Below, in pieces: positions 7,373-28,439 of a stretch of 64,000 nt of DNA. Under the pieces are notes generated by a model. That model saw nothing but the letters and a program-made list of their open reading frames with translations, was not told the origin of the DNA and made no database searches. The translations under genes and the position numbers were made by a program. Source of the DNA: Bacteroidota bacterium (GTDB lineage: Bacteria > Bacteroidota > Bacteroidia > Chitinophagales > Chitinophagaceae); the NCBI GenBank assembly GCA_018267545.1, contig JAFDYG010000540.1, forward strand, positions 1 through 64,000, written 5' to 3'. The stretch's first letter is position 1, and each line of letters starts with the position of its first letter.

Positions 7373-8092
7373 ATGCTTCTAATCGCGTTGGCTGTGGCTC
7401 CGGGTATCGCTGTTTGTCTGTTCATCTATTCCCTGAATAAATATGGCAAGGAATCGATACGCCAGCTGGTGCTGGCCTTTATCCTGGGGATGCTGGCAAC
7501 GCTACCGGCCCTTTTAGTACAGACGCTGGCCGAAGACGTGCGCGACGAGCCCTGGCGTCATTCTATTTGGTCTTATCTTTGGTACGCCTTTGTCATTGTA
7601 GCGCTTAGCGAAGAAGGAAGCAAATACATCGTTTTAAGAGGATACGCCTATCCACAGGCGGTTTTTAAAGAACCCTTCGATGGTGTCGTCTTTTCGGTGA
7701 TGATCGGGATGGGCTTCGCTACAGTCGAAAATATCGAATACGTCTGGAAATTTGGACTGGAAACGGGGGTATCACGGTTCTTCCTGGCCATCCCGGCCCA
7801 CGCCTCGTTTGCCGTCCTGATGGGATATCCCGTAGGACGGGCCAAATTCGAGAAAGACCGCTCCTGGTGGCTGATGGGAAAGGGATTGCTGGTAGCCGTG
7901 CTCTTTCATGGCAGCTTCGACTTCTTCCTGTTCCTGCAGCAGAGCAGGGTGGCCAAGCAATACTTTTCCACGGGCGTGCTGTCCTTCGGGGCATTCGCCA
8001 CTTTTTATATCGCCGTCCGGCTGGCCATGCGAGCCTTGCGCATGCACCGGCTCCGGCAGCTGGAAGAAGAGGATACCAATTATGATGGATAA
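7373..8092 (+). CDS. PrsW-family intramembrane metalloprotease, 239 aa
   Basis: A polytopic membrane protein with the conserved glutamate and histidine motifs of PrsW/CPBP-like intramembrane proteases: EEGSKY at about residue 83, FDGVVFSVMIGMGFATVENIEY with its second acidic motif, HASFAVLMGY, and HGSFDF near the last third. PrsW in Bacillus cleaves an anti-sigma factor; in Bacteroidota the substrate is usually unknown. It starts 21 bases after the preceding glycosyltransferase and overlaps the following acetyltransferase by 11 bases, so the three genes probably form one transcript. Confidence 0.88.
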   Translation: MLLIALAVAPGIAVCLFIYSLNKYGKESIRQLVLAFILGMLATLPALLVQTLAEDVRDEPWRHSIWSYLWYAFVIVALSEEGSKYIVLRGYAYPQAVFKEPFDGVVFSVMIGMGFATVENIEYVWKFGLETGVSRFFLAIPAHASFAVLMGYPVGRAKFEKDRSWWLMGKGLLVAVLFHGSFDFFLFLQQSRVAKQYFSTGVLSFGAFATFYIAVRLAMRALRMHRLRQLEEEDTNYDG

Positions 8093-17389: not shown

Positions 17390-18067
17390 TCACACGTCCA
17401 GCACATTCACCAGTCTATTCTTAAAAGCAAACACCACCAGTCCTGCCGTATTTTTGGCCGCCGTTTTAACCAGGAGGCTGTTCCGATACCCATCCACCGT
17501 TCTGACGCTCAAAAAAAGCTTCTCCGCTATCTCCGGTGTAGTATATTCCCTGCAGATGAGCTCCAGGATCTCGATCTCCCTTCTCGTCAGGTTCAGGGTC
17601 ATTTCGAAAGGCGTCGCCCTACCCTTTCGGTCAAGCTGACCCGAATGAAGTACCCGTATTACCATTTCATTGAAGTAGAAACCCGTCTGATGCACCGTAG
17701 TGATAGCCTTATACAGCTCTTCCAGGGTTGTATTTTTCGCCATATACCCGTTGATGCCGTGCTTTACCATATGCGCCACATATTTTTCGTCGCCATGCAC
17801 CGACAGGATGACGATCTTGACGTCAGGCAGACATTTACGCAGGCGACGGGTTGCTTCCAGCCCGTTCATTTCCGGCATCATAAGATCCATCAGGACAACA
17901 TCGGGCGATGGATTCGGGCTTGTCACCCACTCGATCAGCTCTCGTCCCGTGCCTACCTCCGCCACTACCTTTATGTTGTCGAAATTCTTCAGGTTGGAGG
18001 TAAGACATTCCCGGAAAAGGAGCTGGTCGTCTGCTATGGCGACACGTATTGGATTATCCGTTTGCAT
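17390..18067 (-). CDS. NarL/LuxR-type response regulator, 225 aa
   Basis: An N-terminal receiver domain (RVAIADDQLLFRECL; phospho-acceptor Asp in VVLMDLMMPEMNG; conserved Lys in GYMAKNT) and a C-terminal LuxR/GerE HTH (LTRREIEILELICREYTTPEIAEKL, VRTVDGYRNSLLVKT). It overlaps the upstream histidine kinase gene by 14 bases, so the two form a classic translationally coupled two-component system. The regulon is unknown; the neighbouring Crp/Fnr gene is the nearest downstream candidate. Confidence 0.93.
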   Translation of the reverse strand: MQTDNPIRVAIADDQLLFRECLTSNLKNFDNIKVVAEVGTGRELIEWVTSPNPSPDVVLMDLMMPEMNGLEATRRLRKCLPDVKIVILSVHGDEKYVAHMVKHGINGYMAKNTTLEELYKAITTVHQTGFYFNEMVIRVLHSGQLDRKGRATPFEMTLNLTRREIEILELICREYTTPEIAEKLFLSVRTVDGYRNSLLVKTAAKNTAGLVVFAFKNRLVNVLDV

Positions 18068-18869
18068 AACTTTCGCTGTTTAAAGGAGCTGAAACGACGA
18101 CGCGCATGCCTTTTCCCGGCTCACTCTCGAACCGAATTCCAGCATTGATGAGCTGCGCCCTTGCTTCCATATTCCGAAGCCCCGCCCCCCTTTTCAGACC
18201 CGTTTCCCGTTCGTTGTATCCTTTACCATCGTCCCTGTAATACAGGACCAGCCTGTCTTCCTCAACGTCCAATCTCAATTCAATCCTCTTCGCCTCTGCG
18301 TGCTTGATCGTATTGCTCAACAGTTCCTGTACGATACGATATAGGGAAAGCGATACCGTCTCCGGCAGCTCGGGTAGGTATTCTATAGACTCAAAGGAAA
18401 CATCGACCAAATCGGATGGGCCGACCCTCGAGCACAATTCCTCCAATGCTATCGCCAGACCATGCACAGCCAGCATCGGCGGCACGATATCATAAGAGAT
18501 CCGCTGTACGCTCCTGATGCCCGTATCGATAAGGCTCCTCCCGTCCTCGATGATCTTTGCGCCGGGCTGGGAGAATGTCAGCAAAGGTTCGATCTGTCCC
18601 AGCTTGACGCTGAGTATGGAAAACAAGCTGCCGATCTCATCGTGAAGGTCCTGGGCAATACGGCGCCGCTCCTCTTCCACCTGCTGTATCGTATTGTTCA
18701 GCACTTCCATACGGGTAGAGACCTCTGCTTCCTGCAGCTGCAGCCTCTGGCGATGCAGCCTCCTGCGGTACAGCAGAAAAAAATATACGATCGCCCCGCC
18801 CATCAAAAAGAACGCAAACGTCCCCACGAACAGGAAATAAAAGATGTCTATTCGACTTTGTAGTTCCAT
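18054..18869 (-). CDS. Sensor histidine kinase, HisKA_3/NarX-like, 271 aa
   Basis: One N-terminal transmembrane helix (residues 9-33), a short coiled coil, and a HisKA_3 dimerisation domain with phospho-acceptor His in RRIAQDLHDEIGSLF. The HATPase domain has YYRDDGKGYNERE and GAGLRNMEARAQLI. There is no periplasmic sensor domain, so the signal may come from the membrane protein encoded immediately upstream, whose reading frame overlaps this one by 22 bases. Its partner is the overlapping NarL-type regulator. Confidence 0.92.
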   Translation of the reverse strand: MELQSRIDIFYFLFVGTFAFFLMGGAIVYFFLLYRRRLHRQRLQLQEAEVSTRMEVLNNTIQQVEEERRRIAQDLHDEIGSLFSILSVKLGQIEPLLTFSQPGAKIIEDGRSLIDTGIRSVQRISYDIVPPMLAVHGLAIALEELCSRVGPSDLVDVSFESIEYLPELPETVSLSLYRIVQELLSNTIKHAEAKRIELRLDVEEDRLVLYYRDDGKGYNERETGLKRGAGLRNMEARAQLINAGIRFESEPGKGMRVVVSAPLNSESYANG

Positions 18870-19495
18870 AACCCGACAAAAATAAAAATGTAAAGCAGGT
18901 TGCTAAAGCAAGCATGCAGGGTCCAGATGTAGATATTGAAACGATGATCGAGCGGCAAAATATAATTGCTCAGGGTAAATAAGGATAGCGCCGCGGAAAA
19001 ATAAAGCAGGAACCCGGTATTGATCCAGAAATCGGGGGAAGCCCTGATCAGCCCCGACGCGATTCCGGATAGAACCTTATAATAATAGATGATCGACCAG
19101 GCAATCACAATCACGGCCTCGACAGGACGTGTATAGGTGTTGAAATGGTTCCACCCCTGGATAAAAAACGAATTGCACAACGAAGCGATCACGAAGACAG
19201 CGATGGTGACGGGAATCAGGGCCTTTGGCAGCACCTCTTTGAGCGCGTCCTGGTAATAGCACCCGATAAGCAGCAATTCCACAACAGTGTACACGTGAAG
19301 CAGGGCCAGGTTGGCGATATGAAACGTATTCAATATCGATGCAGCTATCCCGCAGGCGGCCGCATTCAATAACAGGAAGCACAATACCCGGAACCTCGGC
19401 GTATACTGCTTGAAATTCTTTACCGACAGAAACAACGGCAAAAGAGGCACCCCCACCGAAGTGTACAGGATAATTTTTGCTATTACCGGTTGCAT
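18848..19495 (-). CDS. Polytopic (about 7-TM) membrane protein upstream of a two-component system, 215 aa
   Basis: A hydrophobic protein with about seven helices and an aromatic-rich C-terminus (SNLLYIFIFVGLWNYKVE). I do not recognise a named family beyond the small integral-membrane proteins that often precede histidine kinases in Bacteroidota. It overlaps the kinase gene by 22 bases, so co-translation is almost certain. A sensory or signal-relay role for the kinase, which lacks its own sensor domain, is inferred from this linkage. Confidence 0.75.
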   Translation of the reverse strand: MQPVIAKIILYTSVGVPLLPLFLSVKNFKQYTPRFRVLCFLLLNAAACGIAASILNTFHIANLALLHVYTVVELLLIGCYYQDALKEVLPKALIPVTIAVFVIASLCNSFFIQGWNHFNTYTRPVEAVIVIAWSIIYYYKVLSGIASGLIRASPDFWINTGFLLYFSAALSLFTLSNYILPLDHRFNIYIWTLHACFSNLLYIFIFVGLWNYKVE

Positions 19496-19950: not shown

Positions 19951-19977
19951 AAAAAACAGCCGGCGAATCCGGCTGTT
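19951..19977 (-). terminator. Rho-independent terminator of the accessory operon
   Basis: AACAGCCGG (19955-19963), 5-base loop, CCGGCTGTT (19969-19977). Read on the minus strand the stem is followed by a run of T's (complement of the A tract at 19951-19956). It lies 23 bases past the stop of the Nudix gene. Confidence 0.88.
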
Positions 19978-19999: not shown

Positions 20000-20806
20000 T
20001 TATTGCCCTGTAAAAATAGCAGTTCCCCCAGGTTCCGTATCAGTGTTAAACTGTACGTGCTCGATCCGCTGTCCGTTATACGAAATGATATATTCCCCCT
20101 CACCCAACAGCCTGTTCTCGTCATACAAAAGATTCGTTACGATGTACTGCGAATTAGGCTCAGTGGACATATCCAACCCAACTCCCACCGTTCTGCCTTC
20201 CAGGTCGATGACCGTAACCCGGAATAGCTGATTGCGGAGGTTTAACAGGATAGCATAGTACCAGTCCGTAGCGGGGTCATTCCTAAGTCTCTCGATCTCG
20301 TTCCAGTCGTCGAAGAGATTCCAGGTGAAGATATTGGACAGCTCATTATCCTGCGGACAATTGAAAGCGGCCATCAGATCGTCATACTGGTCGTTTCTCG
20401 TATAGGTGCCGGCCCGGATGGCGGCCACTGCGTTGACGCCTGCATCGAGCCGGGACCTGGCCTCCTGAAGCGTGGCGATAAAGGTATCGGCGACCAAAAA
20501 ATAAACGGCATAATACGCTCCGCCGCCGAAAATCGCGGGTGTACAATGACCGGTACCTACTTCGATGCCCGTTTCCTCCTGCAGCTCCCGGATCGCGCCG
20601 GCAATCACTCTTGCATTGGAATAAGGCGGCCCGTCCAGCGCTCCGCCGGGAAACGCCCAGTTGTTGGCTCCGTTGAGAGGTTGTCCCGCGGGAATAATAC
20701 TCCCCCCCGCGCCGTTCGGGTTGTGAAAGAAATAACCGCGTAGATTCTTGAATGCAATCATAAAATTGCCCCTGCCGTTGTAAACGACAGCATACACTTG
20801 TGGCAT
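20000..20806 (-). CDS. Atypical Nudix-domain protein, 268 aa, last gene of the accessory operon
   Basis: A Nudix-like domain lies at about residues 1-130: GGALDG at 54-59 and RELQEETGIEV at 73-83. The box is longer than GX5EX7REUXEEXGU by about four residues, and the usual first Glu is missing, while the REUXEE metal-binding half is intact. The C-terminal half (about 150-268) is unfamiliar: it has a WYYAILLNLRNQLFRVTVID strand region and ends in a beta-rich tail (GEYIISYNGQRIEHVQF). No signal peptide. It follows the GT32-like gene by 18 bases. A nucleotide-sugar or similar pyrophosphatase role would fit the glycosyltransferase neighbours but is unproven. Confidence 0.65.
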   Translation of the reverse strand: MPQVYAVVYNGRGNFMIAFKNLRGYFFHNPNGAGGSIIPAGQPLNGANNWAFPGGALDGPPYSNARVIAGAIRELQEETGIEVGTGHCTPAIFGGGAYYAVYFLVADTFIATLQEARSRLDAGVNAVAAIRAGTYTRNDQYDDLMAAFNCPQDNELSNIFTWNLFDDWNEIERLRNDPATDWYYAILLNLRNQLFRVTVIDLEGRTVGVGLDMSTEPNSQYIVTNLLYDENRLLGEGEYIISYNGQRIEHVQFNTDTEPGGTAIFTGQ

Positions 20807-20824
20807 AAGAAATGGTTTTAATTG

Positions 20825-21649
20825 TTATTGATGAATATGTCGAAACAGCTGATTGGTTGAATATCCATATTGGATCATATAGCTATCCTTGAATATGCTC
20901 GTATCGATACCCGACAGGTCCTGCAGCCAGCTCGCAGGATAGAAGTAGTGCGTCGGAAATACGGTAATGTCATGGGACAAGACTACATCCGAAAAAAATA
21001 GCGGGCCCGATGCGATCCAGCTCGGGTAGCCGCATTCCCATCGGGTATAGGGAAACGTAAGCCTAAGTCGCCTGATCACGTAATACATCAGAGGATTCAG
21101 CGGCGAGCAGCCGATGACCCCATTTGCCACCATACGTTCATCCTCTCTTCCCGCAAATAATCCGGTTGGGCCGGTCCGCTCCAGCAGCTCATCCAGCGGC
21201 TTACCATTGAGCCACTGCGCATCGGCGTCGATATAAATCCCGCCGTACCGATATAGTAATTCGTAGCGCAAGATGTCCGCCTTCCCGGCCGGATATTGCT
21301 CCTTCTCATAAAGGTCCCGGTTGACCAAATCCAGGCCAGCGATGTCTTCCTCCCGCCACAAAAAATACTCCCAGTCGGGAAAAGCCGTCGTAAACGCTTT
21401 CCGGAAGCTATCTATCCATTTCCACGGCGGCGGATACGGACCGATCCAGATCTGGTGTATTTTCTTCGGAATGGCGGCAGGGCACAGCCGAAAATGTTCC
21501 CGCAGCGCATCCCTCATCTCCTGCTCCTTCCGGCAGCCGATTTTTATCTTATAGGCGGAGTGATCTTTTTCAAACAGCAGGTCCTCCGTCTGCAGGCGGT
21601 CGATCATCCCGATCAGGCAGCTGACGCCGCTCCTATCATTGTGCATCAT
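20825..21649 (-). CDS. GT32/OCH1-like glycosyltransferase with DXD motif, 274 aa
   Basis: The domain begins with IPKKIHQIWIGPYPPPWKWI, the signature start of the Gly_transf_sug (GT32, OCH1/capsular) family, followed by GKADILRYELLYRYGGIY and the DAD metal-binding motif at IDADAQW. A preceding segment of about 60 residues is unusual. No membrane segment or signal peptide is visible, so it should act in the cytoplasm on a nucleotide-sugar donor. It overlaps the three-domain glycosyltransferase by 14 bases. The acceptor is unknown; operon context raises the possibility of a protein acceptor. Confidence 0.82.
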   Translation of the reverse strand: MMHNDRSGVSCLIGMIDRLQTEDLLFEKDHSAYKIKIGCRKEQEMRDALREHFRLCPAAIPKKIHQIWIGPYPPPWKWIDSFRKAFTTAFPDWEYFLWREEDIAGLDLVNRDLYEKEQYPAGKADILRYELLYRYGGIYIDADAQWLNGKPLDELLERTGPTGLFAGREDERMVANGVIGCSPLNPLMYYVIRRLRLTFPYTRWECGYPSWIASGPLFFSDVVLSHDITVFPTHYFYPASWLQDLSGIDTSIFKDSYMIQYGYSTNQLFRHIHQ

Positions 21650-23813
21650 AGACCTTCGGTTGCCCCACCCTATCCGAAGGCAGGAGGTTTATCAATCGAT
21701 CGACCGGGTAAGGATGCCACCTGCCGTCCCTGGTATTCTTGGGACTGGTGTTCGCAGGATGTACAAATGCGACGAAGGCTTCCTCGTGATCGTGTGCAAA
21801 AACCTTTGTTCCCGGCCGCCATACAAAATCATTGTCTTCGCCGACCCGCATATCCCTGAAGCGGTGCTGCAGCCAGTACGACCGTCTGTAGGCCATCGTT
21901 GCGCCCGCTACCCACGGACGATCTTTTTCGGGATAGTGATATTTCCAGGCGGCATGCATATGCGGCGCATAAAATAAGACCTTTGCAAGACCGGTGATGT
22001 CTGCGCCGGAAGCCTGCAAGCTTCTGACCTGGCGTGAGACCCAGTCGGGGCCATACCAGTCGTCATCATCCCAGTGGACGATGATCTCACCCTTTGCCAT
22101 TTCACAGGCATAGTTTCGAAGTTGTCCGACAGTAGCTTTGTTTGCCGGCAGCCGAACGTATCGTATACGTGAGTCCGCGGGAATCATCGATTCCACCGAG
22201 GTATTTCCATTGTCTACGATGATCAATTCGGTATTAGCATAGTCCTGCTGCTGGAAATATCGGATAGCCGACGGCAGAAATAGCTGACGATTAGCCGTAG
22301 GCATGATGCAAGAGACGAGGGGGCATGCCCCCGCTGCCCAGGCGGGCAGCGCGGCTTCCGACCAGCCGTTTTGCCGGGGCAAGCTCCCCATCCTAAATTT
22401 CCACGTATTGGCTTCATGCCGGTAATAGATAAACAAGTCCCTGCCGTCCATCTTTTGCAAGCGCCCGCCAGCCCGCAGGATGCGACACATAAATTCAGCG
22501 TCCTCCCTCAAAGAAATTTCCGGGTACCCCGATTCTTTCGTCCAATAGCTTTTCAGATACACCAACGTACCGGCAGCGATATTTTCCAGAAAAAGCCTCC
22601 TGAACAGCTCCGGTGAGCACGCCCAGCATCGTTCCCTCGCTGCTTCGTAAAACAGGAAGGAATGCAAGCCCGTCACCTCCGCCGTTCCTTCCAGGATAGG
22701 CTCCACCTGGCGGCTTAGCCGCTGCGGATGATAGATATCGTCGTCGTCCCACTGGGCGATGATAAGACCGGCGGCCTGCCGGCAGCCTTCATTTCTCTTG
22801 GCGCCGATGCTTTTGGCCCCGGAGCGAACCAGTCTCACCCGATGATCTGTTTCGAGATCAGCAGGAAGATCTGCCGGTTCATTGTATACGACGATCAGCT
22901 CTTTATGAGTATAATCTTGCTGCAGAAAATAGTGAATAGCTTTTTTAATAAACTGCGGCCGGCCGGCGGTAGGCATGACGCAGCTGACCAGGGGCAAAGC
23001 GCGTCCAGCTTGCGTCAGAGGAGCCATTGCGGTCTGTATGGGTAAATCTATTTTTAGTCTTATCAATCCGGGGTCGGCAAAATTCGAACAGCCGTCTCCA
23101 CGACAGTGCTCCCGGAACGGAGTAGATGCGGCAGACTGCTGCCGGGAACAAAACCGTCGTTGATATATTTGCCGGCCTTTGTCCAGATCTTCCGCAGGCC
23201 AGGATAAGCTGCGCCATGCAAACGCGCCTTTCACCCATATCCCTTTGTATCCAGCCCTTGCCGCCCGTATATTGAAGTCCATTTCCCAGCAGGGCGTCAG
23301 GCCATAGGCTTCGTCGGCTCCCCCTATCGATTCGATCACCTCCCTCTTGACGACATAACAAAAATCGGAGAGGCTGTACAAAGGCTCGAGCGTATCCAGC
23401 TCGCCACCATATCGCTTATCCAGGTGAGCGGCAATCTCACGAAAATTCTGTGTAATGAGCGAAGGCAGCAGGGACGACTGCTGATTCCATCCGGTATTGC
23501 AGGATGGGCCGGCCAGGCCAGCGCCAGGATGTTCTTCCAGAGCCGTGACCAGCTGTTCCAGACAACGAGGCCCCAGCAGCAAGCCGGCTTCCAGCAAGAC
23601 AAAATAATCTATACCTGTTTGTGACACCAGCCGGTTGAAGCAATAAGCCTTTCCCTTAGCCGCATCCGGTCCATTTCCGTCGGCAAGCACGGATATCGAG
23701 AAGGCATCGGGCATCCGTGAAAGCGCGATCGTGTCGAGGGTCCGCTGCACATCTGCCAGCGTAGCAAAAGCAGGCGCATAAATGCCGATCGATATTTTTC
23801 TGTCTTTATACAT
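21636..23813 (-). CDS. Three-domain family 2 glycosyltransferase, 725 aa
   Basis: Three GT-A-like domains in tandem. Domain 1 (about 6-235) starts ISIGIYAPAFATLADVQRTL and has LEAG at 74-77 where a DXD would be expected, but keeps CWEMDFNIRAARAGY. Domain 2 (about 274-475) starts PLVSCVMPTAGRPQF and has WDDDD at 355-359. Domain 3 (about 498-715) starts PLVSCIMPTANRQLF and has WDDDD at 581-585. Domains 2 and 3 are clear internal duplicates. No transmembrane segments, so a soluble cytoplasmic enzyme. It overlaps the tail-collar-like gene upstream by 8 bases. Donor, acceptor and product are unknown. Confidence 0.85.
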   Translation of the reverse strand: MYKDRKISIGIYAPAFATLADVQRTLDTIALSRMPDAFSISVLADGNGPDAAKGKAYCFNRLVSQTGIDYFVLLEAGLLLGPRCLEQLVTALEEHPGAGLAGPSCNTGWNQQSSLLPSLITQNFREIAAHLDKRYGGELDTLEPLYSLSDFCYVVKREVIESIGGADEAYGLTPCWEMDFNIRAARAGYKGIWVKGAFAWRSLSWPAEDLDKGRQIYQRRFCSRQQSAASTPFREHCRGDGCSNFADPGLIRLKIDLPIQTAMAPLTQAGRALPLVSCVMPTAGRPQFIKKAIHYFLQQDYTHKELIVVYNEPADLPADLETDHRVRLVRSGAKSIGAKRNEGCRQAAGLIIAQWDDDDIYHPQRLSRQVEPILEGTAEVTGLHSFLFYEAARERCWACSPELFRRLFLENIAAGTLVYLKSYWTKESGYPEISLREDAEFMCRILRAGGRLQKMDGRDLFIYYRHEANTWKFRMGSLPRQNGWSEAALPAWAAGACPLVSCIMPTANRQLFLPSAIRYFQQQDYANTELIIVDNGNTSVESMIPADSRIRYVRLPANKATVGQLRNYACEMAKGEIIVHWDDDDWYGPDWVSRQVRSLQASGADITGLAKVLFYAPHMHAAWKYHYPEKDRPWVAGATMAYRRSYWLQHRFRDMRVGEDNDFVWRPGTKVFAHDHEEAFVAFVHPANTSPKNTRDGRWHPYPVDRLINLLPSDRVGQPKVYDAQ

Positions 23814-24474
23814 ATTTAATCAGGTAATGGACATACATATTTTTGGATCTCGTCTCCGTGCTGGTCCTTACGGTATTGGGCGTGTCTTCGGGAGGGTCGG
23901 TTGCATTGGTAGGAGGAGAAGTATTGGCAGAGCCTGTCGTCAGCGTCGAATCGCTGCCTTCCTCTCCGATCGTGGCTACAGTGGGAGTCGGGTCGGTATA
24001 TTCATGCCAGTGCAGCTGAAGAGCGTCCTGCTGAATAGAGCCAACCCCGGCATTCGTCATCCCGTTTTTCAATGTCCGGCTGCCTGCATCCGGGTCGTTT
24101 GGGGCCGTCCCCTGGATGTTCAGCGCTGTGCCATTGACCGCTCGCAGGAAATAACCGCGATAATCCGGGATCCGAAAGGTCGCGTCCGGAGGGAGCTTTC
24201 CCGAATAGCCCGGAGCATATTGATCGCCGGACTTACTATACAGAAATCCGATGACTCGGAACAGCTGGGGATATGCGCAGCAATAGAGCTGTCGCCCGTC
24301 GCAGACCATCCAGCCCCACCCTTCTATATTGTCCGTCACGGGATTGTTTGGAATAGGATCGGTAGTATAGTCCTGCTCCCCCGGCGGCGAGCTGACCGGG
24401 TCTCCGATATCTCCGGCAAAGGCGATGATGGAGCCCGCGGGTATGCCCGCGGAAGCGCTCATGAATGGAAACAT
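23806..24474 (-). CDS. Phage-tail-collar-domain protein, 222 aa
   Basis: A short protein of the phage tail collar / microcystin-dependent-protein type: PAGSIIAFAGD near the N-terminus, GWMVCDGRQLYCCAYPQLF, then ATFRIPDYRGYFLRAVNG. This is the known collar pattern of a GxI-xFAG start, a WxxCDG turn, and a FxxPDxRGxFxR loop. The second half is Thr/Ser/Pro-rich with a His-containing LQLHWHEYTD. No signal peptide. In phages and tail-like particles such proteins cap fibre tips. No tail tube, sheath or baseplate gene is nearby, so this is not a prophage. Start alternatives are ATG 24474 or ATG 24462. Confidence 0.82.
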   Translation of the reverse strand: MFPFMSASAGIPAGSIIAFAGDIGDPVSSPPGEQDYTTDPIPNNPVTDNIEGWGWMVCDGRQLYCCAYPQLFRVIGFLYSKSGDQYAPGYSGKLPPDATFRIPDYRGYFLRAVNGTALNIQGTAPNDPDAGSRTLKNGMTNAGVGSIQQDALQLHWHEYTDPTPTVATIGEEGSDSTLTTGSANTSPPTNATDPPEDTPNTVRTSTETRSKNMYVHYLIKYV

Positions 24475-24478
24475 ATAA

Positions 24479-27322
24479 TCAGGTATTAAAAGCAGGAAGG
24501 CGGTCGTCGTCCTGCAGCCATTGCATTTGTGTCGGAACGGTGAGACGCCAGCTGTCCAATTCCGTTACCGGCTCACGACCAGGAACCTCTCCCAGCTGTT
24601 TCAATGACGCGGCAATCACTCTATCGTTTTCAAAGACCGCTGTCAAATGGTCTTTACCATACATCAGCAGGCCCGCCGAAAGGTAATAAAGCACCCTGAA
24701 GGCATAGCTGGATTTGACCGGCACCAGCACCCTAAGTCTTCTGGCCCTTATGAACGAGGTCATAGGCTGATTGCTCCAGGCTTCGTCCAGCTTTTCCAGG
24801 AGATCTTCCTTCCGGCTTGCCACCGGCTCATCTTCCATGGAGCAACTCATTTCGTGCCATTCGAAGGCCTCACCAAAAAACTGCAGGTAGGCAGGTTTGT
24901 CCACCAGCTCCTGTGGAGGCGAGGCAGACGGCTGAATAATCCCATTGTTTTTTTCATAAAGCTGATACAGTACGGACTGGCAGGCTTCCAGAACGGTTCT
25001 GCGAATAGCCCTGTTTTCTACCTGCCTGTTGAAAGGCCCCTGCCCTTCCGCTTCCCGATGGTCATATCTTCTTTGTTGCCTATCATAGGCATTCCGGATC
25101 AGATTATATACTTTCAGCTGCCAGGCGTTGAATGCTTCTTCGGAAAGGCTGCAATGCACGGCAATGCTCAGGTAGAAGGTAGTCCGGGCAGGAGGAGAAG
25201 CAACTGCAATATCCAGCAATATGGGCAGTGCGTCTACCTCGCAGGCAATGCCCAATGGGTCGGTGATGGTAATCACCGACGCTGTCGCATCCAGATCTAC
25301 CTGTTTGACCCCGACTATCAACAATGCGGGTTGTGAAAGATTATAGGTGACGGTGACAGAATCCGGGATATACCCCTCGGGTACGCGGATGCCATCAGCC
25401 GGGAAAAAAGTTTCGTCGGTAAGCATGGCCGTAACTACTCTGGCACCAACCGGCGGAAGAGGTAGATCCGAAACCTGGTAATAGGCGCCGAGGTGGACAA
25501 AATTATCCGCGGTAATATCCCTGAAGGAATGTACCGGTTCGGCCAGCTTGTCCGGGGGCAGCAAAGGCAGCTCGACGCCATTTCTATCACCATCCGTCCT
25601 GGTCAAAGAAGGTTTTTGGATCAGAAATTCCAGGATGAATCTTCGGCCGTAGTTGACCAGCCGCATCTTGTATACCTTGTTGAGCCAGCGATAGATGCCC
25701 CGGATATTTCGGCCGCCTTGTCTGTTATCGATGGTCCGGATGACGACGTCTTCCGTCTCCCGCTTCGAGCTGGATTTCCGGTGGTCATAGACTTCCTGTG
25801 AAATCCGCTGTACTGCCTCCGCCAATATTTTCTTTGCAAAGTGTGTGGAGCCCGTATTGTCCAGGTCAGTGATGGTTTTGGTGTCCTTTACCTTTCCATT
25901 ATAGGTACCGGTCGTAGGAGGTCCGTAAGAAGTGGTAAGATTGGTAAAATCCAGCTCATTCGAGATCGTTTGATTCAATGCTCTTATCACAGCCTTTTCC
26001 AATTGCTCACCGGTCGAATAACGGTCATTGCCGACCTGCTTCCGGTTTCCATATTCCGTCGTTTCCTCGAAGAGATGCTTATGTCTGTTCTTCACCTTTT
26101 TTATCTCTCCGGTAAATACGTTTTCGATCTGGGCTATCTCCCCCGGCTCGTATCCCGTGTGACAGTGCTGTACCTTCTGAAGATCGCCGATAGCATACGG
26201 CACGATAACACCGGAATAGAGAGGCGGCTTTTGTAATCCCGGTTTTTGTAATCCGCCAAGCCCTTCCGGCGCAAAAGCGGGTAAGGGGAAGACGCCAGGT
26301 GGTAATACCACCGAGGCCCGGATAAGCCGCTTCCATTGGCCGCAGTTTTCTTCGCTGGGGATCCTGACCTCCGCGAGCAAATGGTCAATTACAAGCATCT
26401 TGATCAGCTGTTCCAGGACATATGCTCCATACCCGGCAATGATATTCAGCGCCATCACGTTCTGCCAGATACGGTCCAGCTGCAGTTGGTAGATCGGTGT
26501 TGGGATCAGTTGGTCGATATCTTCCCAATCGGCAATGAAGTTTCTCAACAGCTGCAACAAAGATTCCCAATCCGATGGAGCGTCGTACCGGTACAGGATG
26601 TCATAGATTTCCGGATAGACATTAAACGGAAAGATCAGATTCCCTGGTTCGCTGATAAAACAGCCGGCGTATGGAGGGCCCTCGTTTATAAAAAGCAGGG
26701 CTTCTTTCTCCATCTCCGTTCTGGCGTCGGTATCAGTCCTCAGAGACAGCAGGCGTGTATAGAAATCTGAGGACGAAGGGGGGCTGTACCTGCCGCCGGA
26801 GTATTGAATAAATAACGGCTCATCCGCAGCAGACAGGGCTGGCCAGTATTGTAGATACAGATAGGGAAAAAGGTCCTGAAAGCCTGCGGCCCTGATCAGC
26901 TCATTCCCCGGAAGAGGGTCAGGAGTGACGTCGACAACCGGGACAGGAACAGGAATGGGCGGAACAGGACGAATCTTCCCTAATTCAAAGACATTGCCTT
27001 CGAAATGTTCCTCATATACTTCTCCAAACCACGCATCGAGGAAGACGAACTCCTCTCCCGTACGCAGGGATTGAAAAAGATGGAAGCTGCCTTTGATGCT
27101 GATCCCATCTTCGAAGAGCAGATGAAATTCGATGCGGTCGTCCGGGATCAGGCATTCGCTCCAGTCCCATGTAAAACCCGGCCGGTCGTGCCGGAACAAG
27201 GAAACCGTTAGCCAGGGACATTCTCTGTTCGGGTGCTTTACAGGAATCTGGGAGCCCAGGTATTCAAATGAAAAGGTGAATTGGTAGAGTCCCCTGTATA
27301 TTAAGGTAAATGGCTTTTTCAT
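24479..27322 (-). CDS. Large uncharacterised protein with YEPGEIAQIENV motif, 947 aa
   Basis: I cannot assign a function. The start is ATG 27322, overlapping the upstream stop as ATGA; a longer frame was rejected. Residues 1-115 form a beta-rich domain that resembles the 142-aa protein encoded upstream. Residues 116-370 are mixed helical with a Pro/Val linker (about 118-132). A central block contains YEPGEIAQIENV at 391-402, followed by a charged region, and then GIYRWLNKVYKMRLVNYGR (542-560) leading into EFLIQKPS. From memory, similar blocks occur in large unnamed proteins of cyanobacteria, actinobacteria and Bacteroidota; this needs a search. The C-terminal third has amphipathic helices and beta strands. 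No signal peptide or membrane segment. Confidence 0.7.
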   Translation of the reverse strand: MKKPFTLIYRGLYQFTFSFEYLGSQIPVKHPNRECPWLTVSLFRHDRPGFTWDWSECLIPDDRIEFHLLFEDGISIKGSFHLFQSLRTGEEFVFLDAWFGEVYEEHFEGNVFELGKIRPVPPIPVPVPVVDVTPDPLPGNELIRAAGFQDLFPYLYLQYWPALSAADEPLFIQYSGGRYSPPSSSDFYTRLLSLRTDTDARTEMEKEALLFINEGPPYAGCFISEPGNLIFPFNVYPEIYDILYRYDAPSDWESLLQLLRNFIADWEDIDQLIPTPIYQLQLDRIWQNVMALNIIAGYGAYVLEQLIKMLVIDHLLAEVRIPSEENCGQWKRLIRASVVLPPGVFPLPAFAPEGLGGLQKPGLQKPPLYSGVIVPYAIGDLQKVQHCHTGYEPGEIAQIENVFTGEIKKVKNRHKHLFEETTEYGNRKQVGNDRYSTGEQLEKAVIRALNQTISNELDFTNLTTSYGPPTTGTYNGKVKDTKTITDLDNTGSTHFAKKILAEAVQRISQEVYDHRKSSSKRETEDVVIRTIDNRQGGRNIRGIYRWLNKVYKMRLVNYGRRFILEFLIQKPSLTRTDGDRNGVELPLLPPDKLAEPVHSFRDITADNFVHLGAYYQVSDLPLPPVGARVVTAMLTDETFFPADGIRVPEGYIPDSVTVTYNLSQPALLIVGVKQVDLDATASVITITDPLGIACEVDALPILLDIAVASPPARTTFYLSIAVHCSLSEEAFNAWQLKVYNLIRNAYDRQQRRYDHREAEGQGPFNRQVENRAIRRTVLEACQSVLYQLYEKNNGIIQPSASPPQELVDKPAYLQFFGEAFEWHEMSCSMEDEPVASRKEDLLEKLDEAWSNQPMTSFIRARRLRVLVPVKSSYAFRVLYYLSAGLLMYGKDHLTAVFENDRVIAASLKQLGEVPGREPVTELDSWRLTVPTQMQWLQDDDRLPAFNT

Positions 27323-27747
27323 TCGTCCTTGCTTTGGGAAGGGTTGATCGTTACCATATCCCCTTCGAATGTGGACAGATATCCGGGGCCAAACTGTATA
27401 TCGAACCAAACGAACATGCCTCCCGTATAAGAGTTCTTGTATAGTTTGAATGTCCCCTTACAATTATTGTCGTCGGGATACGCCATTTCCGGTGTAACAT
27501 CGGGATCAGCGGGTAGAGAAAAAGCAACAGGAGCGGTAGCCGACAGGTTTCCTTCCCAGTGAAAGAAATCGTCGGGAACATCTTCCCTGTAAAACAAGCA
27601 TTCTACATATGGATTGCTGCGGTTGTGGGTAACCGGCCGGCCAGACTGCGGTGGAGAGGAAGGCGGCGAAAGAAGCGGACTATCCGGTGAAAAAGAAAAT
27701 TCGAAGATGAAGGTGATATCTCCGGACAGAAGTTTACTGCTTACCAT
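27319..27747 (-). CDS. Uncharacterised 142-aa protein related to the N-terminus of the 947-aa protein
   Basis: A beta-rich protein with a Ser/Pro-rich insertion (about residues 20-40). Residues 97-133, beginning CKGTFKLYKNSYTGG and ending FEGDMVTI, align with residues 77-114 of the downstream large protein (IKGSFHLFQSLRTGE ... FEGNVFEL). The earlier strand ITFIFEFSF aligns with YQFTFSFEY. The two are therefore related by duplication. The gene ends by an ATGA overlap with the large gene. No signal peptide; no known family recognised. Confidence 0.68.
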   Translation of the reverse strand: MVSSKLLSGDITFIFEFSFSPDSPLLSPPSSPPQSGRPVTHNRSNPYVECLFYREDVPDDFFHWEGNLSATAPVAFSLPADPDVTPEMAYPDDNNCKGTFKLYKNSYTGGMFVWFDIQFGPGYLSTFEGDMVTINPSQSKDE

Positions 27748-27778
27748 TTTTTTGCGATTTAAGATGATTCGTGTAATG

Positions 27779-27801
27779 AGGCCCGGAAGGACTCCGGGCC
27801 T
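27779..27801 (-). terminator. Internal hairpin after the first gene of the accessory operon
   Basis: AGGCCCGGA (27779-27787), loop AGGAC, TCCGGGCCT (27793-27801): a perfect 9-bp GC-rich stem in the 77-bp gap between the 204-aa and 142-aa genes. On the minus strand it is followed by CATTACACG rather than a T tract, so it may act as a partial terminator or an mRNA stabiliser that favours the first gene. Confidence 0.5.
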
Positions 27802-27824
27802 TCTGCTTCAGAGAATTAGGTAGT

Positions 27825-28439
27825 CTACGCGGTTGGCACGAGGGTAAACTTGAACGGCACGGCGGAAGAACCGATGCCGCCTCCCGTCATGATGAGATTC
27901 GCCTTTGTGATACCCAGGAGAGACAGTTCGGTGTTGATGTCGGACAGGATGGCGGAGTTCATGATATCCCCTTCTTCAATCTCGGAGACGACTCCTACCC
28001 AGATGGTGGGGTTGAATTCGAACACCGCTTTTTGCTGGGGAGAAACACCGGTCTTCGTTGCCAGGAGCTTGCCATCTTTATAGATCTGTGCATTGACGGA
28101 CCCTACCGGCAGCAGGTTTTTGACCTCTACCTCGGTCATGCTGGAAGCCGGGTTGGCATCGAGCGTCAGGATATCGCCTGAAGGAGAGCGAACGACGTCC
28201 CACTTCTGCCCATTGACCGCCTGCTTCATATCGGAGACATTCCCGGAAGAGTCCTCAGCGGCCACATAAAAATCCATGGGGTATTTGAAGTTGTGCGTCC
28301 AGTTACGACCGCAATTCTCGATAACGCGCCAGGCCACAGCTATTTCTTCGAAATTGGTGGCGACATTTTTCTGGAAGATTACGATTTTGGAGTTGTTCTG
28401 GTCATAAGACTGGTTGATAAAAGTGATTTGAATGTCCAT
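27825..28439 (-). CDS. Uncharacterised 204-aa protein, first gene of the accessory operon
   Basis: A soluble beta-rich protein with no signal peptide, beginning MDIQITFINQSYDQNNSKIV. Notable segments are VIFQKNVATNFEEIAVAWRV, PTIWVGVVSEIEEGDIMNSA, the helical NTELSLLGITKANLIMTGGG, and a C-terminal strand. I recall proteins with this pattern as hypothetical entries in several phyla, but no function. Because it is first in the operon and separated from the rest by a hairpin, it may be the most abundant product. A structural or surface role is inference. Confidence 0.68.
   Translation of the reverse strand: MDIQITFINQSYDQNNSKIVIFQKNVATNFEEIAVAWRVIENCGRNWTHNFKYPMDFYVAAEDSSGNVSDMKQAVNGQKWDVVRSPSGDILTLDANPASSMTEVEVKNLLPVGSVNAQIYKDGKLLATKTGVSPQQKAVFEFNPTIWVGVVSEIEEGDIMNSAILSDINTELSLLGITKANLIMTGGGIGSSAVPFKFTLVPTA

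What the first reader, a model, noticed from the sequence alone, without database searches (positions are those of the whole stretch)
20000..28439. Compact seven-gene accessory operon: tail-collar fibre-like protein, a large unknown protein and three putative sugar/nucleotide enzymes
All seven genes lie on one strand with overlaps or tiny gaps (ATGA, 14-, 8- and 4-base junctions), bounded by a strong terminator at 19951-19977 and a palindrome upstream. The order is 204-aa unknown, 142-aa unknown, 947-aa unknown, tail-collar protein, three-domain GT2, GT32-like, Nudix-like. None of the four unknown or collar proteins has a signal peptide, and no tail sheath, tube, baseplate, lysis or integrase gene is nearby. 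Hypothesis: a fibre- or particle-like product that is glycosylated in the cytoplasm by dedicated enzymes and displayed or released by an unknown route. Seen: gene order, motifs and coupling. Known: collar domains in phage fibres, GT2 and GT32 chemistry. Inference: the joint system.
Basis: partly seen in the sequence, partly recalled or inferred. Interest (0 to 1): 0.82.

Follow-up and report, generated by a model that had tools for sequence, protein, structure and literature searches.

The report
Toxin-carrier relative in RhiAB-like operon
A bacterium related to Chitinophaga carries an operon whose core genes recur together in distant bacteria: its large unknown protein belongs to a widespread family otherwise often encoded next to toxins and lytic enzymes, and two of its partners resemble the long-unexplained RhiA and RhiB proteins of root-nodule bacteria, which suggests an undescribed way of carrying or displaying proteins.

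Summary
The seven genes are real, on one strand and tightly spaced. The core recurs: P204, P947-like and collar genes in that order in 9 of 11 other distinct collar-type loci from four phyla (two of these known only from metagenome assemblies); the GT2 in 4 of 11; GT32 and Nudix in none. P947's C-terminal 580 residues match 0 of 50,697 phage records but 379 places in GTDB genomes (the 80 best examined). Collar-type carriers are one side of a branch with support 100. Of 81 non-collar loci, 71 have a same-strand gene within 400 bases (median 27); these include patatins, Het-C, PAD, EndoU and ADP-ribosyltransferase, some with SUKH immunity genes behind them. A crude rule finds signal peptides in 0 of 90 carriers. 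The collar protein is a RhiB relative; P204 is a probable distant RhiA relative. Best reading: a carrier module using a non-Sec route, of which this operon is the RhiAB-like form, its enzymes being cargo or modifiers. That mechanism is inferred. Fibre glycosylation stays untested.

The parts
27825..28439 (-). P204: probable RhiA-like all-beta protein, 204 aa
   Evidence: ORF; relatives upstream of the carrier in 9 of 11 other collar-type loci; profile match to RhiA, none at BLAST level; AlphaFold pLDDT 88.7, nearly all beta
27780..27800 (.). perfect 8-bp hairpin with 5-base loop between P204 and P142
   Evidence: read directly; not tested statistically
27319..27747 (-). P142: stand-alone copy of the first domain of P947
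   Evidence: BLASTP to P947 residues 1-114: 30% over 98 columns, E 6e-11; relatives at the start of the carriers L048 and L049 and as a separate gene in L049
24479..27322 (-). P947: collar-type carrier protein; domain 1 about residues 1-118, helical domain about 165-334, C-module about 365-945
23806..24474 (-). RhiB-like tail-collar protein, 222 aa
   Evidence: Pfam Collar E 2.5e-8; RhiB of pRL10 37% over 226 columns, E 7e-30; Rhizobium plasmids E 8e-26 against best phage hit E 2e-11
21636..23813 (-). multi-domain GT2 glycosyltransferase, 725 aa
   Evidence: relatives 36-43% identical in L048, L051, L053, L054
20825..21649 (-). GT32-like glycosyltransferase with DXD motif (motif by eye)
   Evidence: Pfam Gly_transf_sug E 3e-10; no relative in the other 11 collar-type loci
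20000..20806 (-). Nudix-like protein with REXXEE box (box by eye)
   Evidence: Pfam NUDIX E 2e-5; no relative in the other 11 collar-type loci
19955..19977 (-). likely intrinsic terminator of the operon
   Evidence: 9-pair stem then T5
17390..19495 (-). three-gene signalling cassette (215-aa protein, histidine kinase, response regulator; named by eye) that recurs near P204 in three other genomes
   Evidence: relatives of all three in L049, L034 and L036; link to the operon inferred

Best explanation
The operon is the collar-type form of a widespread carrier-plus-cargo module. P947 and its relatives (same C-module, variable N-terminal half) are made in the cytoplasm without a recognisable Sec signal and are mostly encoded just before a variable enzyme or toxin that usually also lacks one; I infer that the carrier binds or packages that partner and takes it out of the cell, by lysis or by an unlinked exporter, to a target cell. 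In the collar-type clade the carrier's fixed neighbours are a RhiA-like beta protein (P204) and a RhiB-like collar protein, which I infer form a body and a receptor-binding fibre around P947; the enzymes further down (GT2, GT32, Nudix here; GT2 with glycan- or wall-cleaving enzymes in some relatives) are cargo or modify the fibre. Shown: gene order, homology, clade, neighbour types, lack of signals by a crude rule. Inferred: complex formation, export, target, and roles of the enzymes.
For: Order P204-carrier-collar in 9 of 11 other distinct collar-type loci from four phyla (the Cyanobacteriota and Acidobacteriota members are metagenome assemblies). Collar-type carriers are one side of a branch with support 100 (11 rows; 0 of 500 shuffles as low; quick tree). 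A P204 domain is fused in frame to the carrier in L050, a hint of physical association. In 69 non-collar downstream genes Pfam finds Patatin 7, M23 4 (four Micromonospora loci whose 763-aa cargo is near-identical, so one event; M23 assigned to them by eye), Het-C 3, PAD 2, PhoD 2, Tox-MPTase4 2 and single EndoU, ADPrib_exo_Tox, CdiA_C tRNase, PT-TG, Amidase_3, PLD, while 74 upstream genes are led by S24 regulators (9) and HTH (4) and otherwise mostly household families, with 3 Patatin and one Het-C at L092. Of 81 non-collar loci 71 have a same-strand gene within 400 bases downstream, median 27, 60 of them within 100. SUKH immunity family in 4 of 10 hand-chosen small genes behind the cargo. Signal-peptide rule: carriers 0 of 90, cargo 3 of 69, other genes 174 of 854 (Fisher p 5e-9 and 4e-4). 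Two collar-type loci carry GH64 and GH18/EndoS-like (L048) or GH25 (L053) genes behind GT2. A collar-domain protein (pfam07484), for which the authors cite the rhiABCR paper, is described as secreted by Ruegeria pomeroyi (PMC4949626, passages).
Against: No complex, export or target was shown. RhiA, P204's probable distant relative, is a cytoplasmic protein that was not found in R. leguminosarum supernatant (PMC2275737, passage). P204 also occurs without a carrier. In L048 and L053 GT2 stands beside glycan- or wall-cleaving enzymes rather than in their place, and its presence in 4 of 11 loci fits a fixed modifying role better than variable cargo. Ten of 81 non-collar carriers have no same-strand gene within 400 bases downstream (some at contig ends). 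AlphaFold of P947 is only moderate (pLDDT 73, pTM 0.54) and matches no solved or viral fold at E <= 0.001, so no pore, shell or fibre fold is identified; a look for an amphipathic beta region was inconclusive. Three patatins and a Het-C also occur among the upstream control genes. The signal-peptide rule is crude and start codons were picked mechanically.
Confidence: 0.4

Rival explanations
1. The carrier and its neighbours are payloads or adaptors of an extracellular contractile injection system (eCIS) encoded elsewhere in the genome; the carrier docks the cargo in the particle.
For: The window's genome has a contractile-sheath gene on contig C406 with neighbours that read by eye as tube, VgrG-like and PAAR-like. 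Sheath matches at E <= 0.001 in 6 of 10 carrier-positive and 47 of 185 other family genomes (Fisher p 0.026; not corrected for kinship or genome size). In L123 a carrier-toxin pair lies about 3 kb from sheath-like genes (named by eye); two viral contigs have tail-like genes nearby (by eye); in L072 the next gene of at least 150 aa upstream, on the other strand, is a VipB sheath gene. L046 has an eCIS_core (DUF4157) gene nearby.
Against: Counting only sheath matches over the curated cut-off, 1 of 10 carrier-positive and 27 of 185 others qualify, no association. 4 of 10 carrier-positive genomes have no sheath match; VipB matches 0 of 10. A sequence search of the loci with the L123 and L129 sheath and tail proteins found them in no other carrier locus outside L129/L130 (two accessory proteins of L129 recur in L043 and one of them in L120).
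Confidence: 0.2
2. One reading: the collar protein (and perhaps P204) forms a fibre that is glycosylated in the cytoplasm by GT2 and GT32 and then displayed or released; the Nudix enzyme serves sugar-nucleotide supply.
For: GT2 overlaps the collar gene in the window and L048, and in L051, L053 and L054 follows it after one shared gene; no signal peptide was flagged in GT2 or GT32.
Against: GT2 was not found in 7 of 11, GT32 and Nudix in 11 of 11 other collar-type loci (some of these contigs are short).
Confidence: 0.15
3. An intracellular system (anti-phage defence or stress response): the carrier senses a trigger and unleashes the neighbouring enzyme inside the same cell.
For: Carriers and most cargo have no signal peptide by a crude rule; patatin and SIR2_2 occur among the cargo and are effectors in known defence systems (recalled).
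Against: None of the seven window proteins matches PADLOC models; cargo includes wall enzymes that act outside the cell (M23, Amidase_3, GH25) and some SUKH immunity genes follow.
Confidence: 0.15
4. A decayed prophage tail-fibre cassette or ordinary capsule genes.
For: The collar domain also matches phage fibres and GT2 matches many polysaccharide transferases, all below their curated cut-offs.
Against: Carrier C-module and P204 match 0 of 50,697 phage records; collar is closer to RhiB (E 8e-26) than to phages (best E 2e-11); the core order is conserved in four phyla.
Confidence: 0.05

Closest known systems
rhiABC operon of Rhizobium leguminosarum
   Same: RhiA and RhiB genes are adjacent; RhiB of pRL10 matches the window collar protein at 37% over 226 columns, E 7e-30; P204 aligns with RhiA over 164 columns (hhalign score 38.6 against 27.4 and 22.9 for the best of 199 column shuffles of either side). 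RhiA is described as highly expressed, about 22 kDa and of unknown function (PMC2275737, passages).
   Different: No carrier relative in the two rhi loci looked at (L131 by profile; L141 by tblastn). BLAST finds no RhiC and no RhiA-level match in the window. Regulation there is by neighbouring LuxR/LuxI genes.
Polymorphic toxin systems (Zhang et al. 2012, PMC3482391, passages)
   Same: Toxin domains of the polymorphic-toxin kind (Het-C; also EndoU, CdiA_C tRNase, ADP-ribosyltransferase, these three recalled) and SUKH immunity genes beside a conserved partner.
   Different: The conserved partner is a separate upstream protein with no family match, rather than the N-terminal part of the toxin (that rule recalled); no toxin or immunity family was recognised in the window operon.
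Extracellular contractile injection systems (PMC8213781, passages)
   Same: Carry toxins that need no Sec signal (recalled); present in 89% of sequenced Chitinophaga (that paper's passage); an eCIS-like cluster lies elsewhere in this genome.
   Different: No sheath match beside the operon: the genome's only one is on another contig.
Two-component (AB-type) bacterial toxins with a separate translocating partner (recalled, no dedicated search)
   Same: Adjacent genes for a conserved large partner and an enzymatic partner.
   Different: No Sec signal by a crude rule, and no sequence or fold match in the PDB searches.

Membership tests
rhiABC operon | RhiB-type collar gene | tested here: met
   37% over 226 columns to pRL10 RhiB, E 7e-30; 42.8% over 77% of the query to other Rhizobium plasmids
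rhiABC operon | RhiA | tested here: inconclusive
   Profile comparison above all shuffles, but hhalign probability only 65-76% and no BLAST match
rhiABC operon | RhiC gene | tested here: not met
   tblastn of pRL10 RhiC against the window: best E 6.3
rhiABC operon | LuxR/LuxI neighbours | tested here: inconclusive
   RhiI best E 0.002 over 45 residues at 7678-7809, RhiR best E 0.07, neither beside the operon; a kinase/response-regulator cassette lies downstream instead
Polymorphic toxin system | variable toxin domains attached to a conserved trafficking part | tested here: inconclusive
   Wider carrier family: adjacent genes, not attached; window operon: no toxin family over its cut-off
Polymorphic toxin system | immunity gene | tested here: not met
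   Window: no immunity family among the seven proteins; wider family: SUKH in 4 of 10 hand-chosen genes
eCIS | sheath, tube, baseplate genes in the cluster | tested here: not met
   Sheath tested: the only match in the genome is on contig C406; tube and baseplate not searched
Prophage tail module | homologues in phage genomes | tested here: not met
   Carrier 0, P204 0 of 50,697 phage records; 3 carrier loci in viral contigs; the collar domain does match phages (128 records)
Polysaccharide locus | GT genes with flippase/polymerase/export genes | not tested
   No such family among the seven proteins; flanks were not scanned
Protein glycosylation system | glycan on the collar or P204 | not testable with these tools
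   Needs mass spectrometry

The most novel reading that the evidence does not exclude
The C-module proteins are a new, phage-independent class of delivery protein found in bacteria and archaea: one large carrier takes a separately encoded toxin or enzyme out of the cell and into a target, and the collar-type clade, armed with RhiA- and RhiB-like parts, is its glycan-directed form. If so, the rhi genes of rhizobia are a pared-down relic or partner of such a delivery particle.
Probability: 0.22. Interest if true: 0.85.

Novelty: new variant of a known kind. Interest (0 to 1): 0.62.

Why it matters
For the window protein no family in Pfam, PHROGs or NCBIfam and no PDB sequence matches below E 0.02, yet 379 related places were found in GTDB genomes, and those examined often sit beside toxin-type or lytic enzymes of about a dozen kinds. 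It gives a concrete handle on how signal-less effectors could leave cells, and links the RhiA/RhiB puzzle (rhizosphere-expressed genes that can influence nodulation; title of Cubo et al. 1992, seen only in reference lists) to a testable conserved module. My nine searches of the paper library listed no paper whose title or shown abstract describes the carrier family or a carrier-RhiAB link; most of the listed papers I did not open, and the library lacks most subscription journals.

Tried and rejected
Structure matches: Foldseek of P947 against PDB and BFVD, and of P204 against PDB, gave nothing at E <= 0.001; sequence and profile searches of PDB gave nothing or chance-level hits. A weak EndoU match in P947 (E 0.31) was rejected. 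A beta-amphipathicity profile meant to look for a membrane hairpin in the C-module was inconclusive and its overall mean came out undefined. T6SS was tested in 10 family genomes by the VipB model (0 of 10), which may miss Bacteroidota-type systems. P204 in a wider Bacteroidota sample: 2 of 296 genomes, one of them the window's own.

Choices that affect counts: the scan found 379 relatives and kept 80; with plasmid, viral and family-genome loci I examined 99 loci. My ORF caller found no carrier ORF in 7 of 99: L020, L041, L044, L053, L055, L068, L109; L053 was added to the tree by direct translation of its match, the others were left out of neighbour counts. L015 and L052 are the same locus and count once among the 11 collar-type loci. 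In the tree, carriers covering under 500 model positions (among them L054, whose carrier is split in two frames; not repaired) were dropped. The fold of P947 used 37 of the 43 carriers listed plus the window; six (near copies and one with unknown letters) were left out by hand. Cargo rows: first gene of at least 150 aa among the first two within 400 bases; I replaced two lipoprotein rows (L018, L078) by hand with later genes, while the signal-peptide count used the unreplaced list. Near-identical loci (four Micromonospora, three Chimaeribacter, three Legionella) were not merged. Pfam prints only the 25 commonest of 32 (cargo) and 79 (control) families and does not say how many of the 69 had no match. 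The 10 small genes were chosen by hand; in L076 and L102 they lie behind a second gene rather than directly behind the cargo.

Names by eye, no profile hit: the 438-488-aa protein after the collar in L051, L053, L054 and L056 (28-49% identical to each other) looks nitrilase-like, but Pfam found nothing in three copies tested; cysteine-peptidase-like proteins in L015, L048, L133 (no Pfam hit); the sheath and tail genes of L123, L129, L130.

Full report
Seven minus-strand ORFs lie between 28439 and 20000 with overlaps of 4, 8 and 14 bases and gaps of 4, 18 and 77. Pfam confirms the Nudix, GT32, GT2 and Collar assignments and leaves P947, P142 and P204 unnamed. PHROGs gives tail-fibre matches for the collar protein, glycosyltransferases for GT2 and Nudix families for the Nudix protein, a weak unnamed family for GT32, and only marginal hits (E 0.026) for P947 and P204; NCBIfam gives GT2 matches below their cut-offs, PADLOC nothing. 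A terminator stem lies at 19977-19955.

Recurrence. A search of 195 genomes of the same family found P947 relatives in 10 and P204 relatives in 8, the window's own included. One of them, G006 (its contig matches Chitinophaga tropicalis, L052), has P204, an 884-aa P947 relative and a collar gene in the same order, followed by different genes. The C-terminal part of P947 turned out to be the conserved unit: it also occurs in about 1000-aa proteins followed by a protein-arginine deiminase (L016), a deaminase-toxin-like protein (L017, E 0.004, below cut-off) or, as third gene, Het-C (L018).

A profile of this C-module (A2, 13 sequences) found 379 relatives in GTDB genomes, of which the 80 best were fetched; 12 plasmid records, including the archaeon Natronorubrum bangense, matched P947's own C-module; 3 viral contigs matched the profile and 0 of 50,697 phage records matched the C-module. 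Two groups emerge. In 11 distinct loci besides the window the next gene codes for a collar protein (L046, L048-L054, L056, L097, L119). P204 relatives lie upstream in 9 of these 11 (not in L119, whose carrier starts 1.1 kb from the contig end, nor in L046, although another place on that Photobacterium plasmid has one). The GT2 protein recurs in 4 of 11 (36-43% identity), GT32 and Nudix in 0 of 11. In four loci (L051, L053, L054, L056) the collar gene is followed by a shared 438-488-aa protein (28-49% identical) with no Pfam match in the three copies tested, and in three of them GT2 comes next. Aquimarina (L048) has GH64 and GH18/EndoS-like genes after GT2, and Massilia (L053) a GH25 gene. In L050 a P204 domain is fused in frame to the start of the carrier. 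P142 is a copy of the first domain of P947 (30% over 98 columns, E 6e-11). L049, L050, L051 and L054 are metagenome assemblies (titles), so the phylum labels of L050 and L051 rest on binning.

In a tree of 92 C-modules the 11 collar-type rows are one side of a branch with support 100; the label needs one change against 10.6 in shuffles (0 of 500 as low). The tree method was the quick one, several of these rows have long branches or odd composition, and the root is unknown, so 'clade' depends on the root lying elsewhere.

In the second group 71 of 81 loci have a same-strand gene within 400 bases behind the carrier, at a median of 27 bases, 60 of them within 100; 10 have none. Pfam on 69 such genes: Patatin 7, Peptidase_M23 4 (four near-identical Micromonospora loci, assigned by eye), Het-C 3, PAD 2, PhoD 2, Tox-MPTase4 2, and single matches such as Amidase_3, PLD, SIR2_2, EndoU, ADPrib_exo_Tox, CdiA_C tRNase, PT-TG, Amino_oxidase and PPK2. 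The same scan of 74 upstream genes gives S24 regulators (9), HTH (4), Nudix (3), peptidases and household families, but also 3 Patatin, one VipB sheath gene (L072) and one Het-C (L092). The seven patatin loci (recognised by their glycine-rich motif) fall in four places of the drawn tree. Four of 10 hand-chosen small genes behind the cargo belong to the SUKH immunity family. A crude signal-peptide rule rings in 0 of 90 carriers, 3 of 69 cargo genes and 174 of 854 other genes; two of the three cargo hits are lipoproteins by eye rather than cargo.

RhiA and RhiB. The collar protein's best plasmid hits are Rhizobium genes (42.8% over 77% of it, E 8e-26); in UPM791 the matched gene lies directly behind RhiA (the name RhiA from its listing under 'protein rhiA'), and RhiB of strain 3841's pRL10 (annotated tail fiber protein between RhiA and RhiC) matches it at 37% over 226 columns, E 7e-30. 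The best phage hit is E 2e-11 among 128 records. RhiB has a collar domain in print (PMC13133039, passage). A profile of 15 P204 relatives aligns with 7 RhiA sequences over 164 columns (score 38.6, E 4e-5 for the single comparison) against 27.4 and 22.9 for the best of 199 column shuffles on either side and 13.9 and 16.6 for reversed alignments (65.5% probability); plain BLAST sees nothing. I take this as distant homology, not proof. RhiC has no match in the window, and no carrier relative lies in the two rhi loci looked at. RhiA is described as a highly expressed cytoplasmic protein of unknown function that was not found in culture supernatant (PMC2275737, passages), whereas a collar-domain protein of Ruegeria pomeroyi was reported as secreted (PMC4949626, passages).

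Structure. AlphaFold2 with 38 sequences gives P947 a mean pLDDT of 73 (pTM 0.54): a beta domain at 1-118, helices at about 165-334, and a C-module with strands of about 30 residues (370-402, 540-569) and poorly predicted stretches between 416 and 519. No PDB or viral structure matches at E <= 0.001. P204 is confidently predicted as nearly all beta (pLDDT 88.7), again without a match.

Contractile systems. A sheath gene with tube-, VgrG- and PAAR-like neighbours (by eye) lies on another contig of the window's genome. Sheath matches at E <= 0.001 occur in 6 of 10 carrier-positive and 47 of 185 other genomes of the family (p 0.026), but over the curated cut-off in 1 of 10 and 27 of 185, so the association is weak at best. 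In Chryseobacterium (L123) a carrier-toxin pair lies near sheath-like genes, and two viral contigs have tail-like genes nearby (by eye). Four of the 10 carrier genomes have no sheath match, so an eCIS is either not required or was missed.

Conclusion. Homology, gene order and neighbour types are shown. That P947 carries something, that it leaves the cell, and that the GT and Nudix enzymes are cargo or modifiers are inferences.

Noticed in passing
window 17390-19495: A 215-aa protein, a histidine kinase and a response regulator (named by eye) follow the operon; relatives of all three lie near P204 genes in L049, L034 and L036, with or without a carrier. A possible regulator.
   Followed up: partly
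window 27780-27800: Perfect 8-bp hairpin with a 5-base loop between P204 and P142; might let P204 be made in excess, as RhiA is.
   Followed up: no
L083, L095, L104, L106, L112 (first gene after the carrier): Several Bacteroidota cargo proteins begin with a similar stretch (F-A/S-D/E-x-F/L-x-x-x-x-P type), and Chitinophagaceae cargo (L021-L023) with N-P-x-S-P-Y-like stretches: a possible loading signal (seen by eye).
   Followed up: no
L123 8288-21410: Carrier and downstream gene near eCIS-like sheath genes (by eye) in Chryseobacterium gambrini.
   Followed up: partly
L072 6377-7771: T6SS-type VipB sheath gene near a carrier, on the other strand, in a Kangiella metagenome assembly.
   Followed up: partly
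L042 7297-12352: Carrier followed, after a small ORF, by a patatin-like phospholipase on a plasmid of the archaeon Natronorubrum bangense.
   Followed up: no
L132 7200-9302: Three P204-like ORFs in tandem in Burkholderia stagnalis, downstream of a lysozyme-like ORF without an obvious signal peptide (by eye).
   Followed up: no
G003, G006, G015, G085, G102: Sets of three neighbouring collar-domain genes elsewhere in genomes of the family, away from the carriers.
   Followed up: no
L046 5496-5897 and 16793-17074: Photobacterium plasmid with a collar-type carrier has an eCIS_core gene and what reads by eye as an R-body (RebB-like) protein nearby.
   Followed up: no
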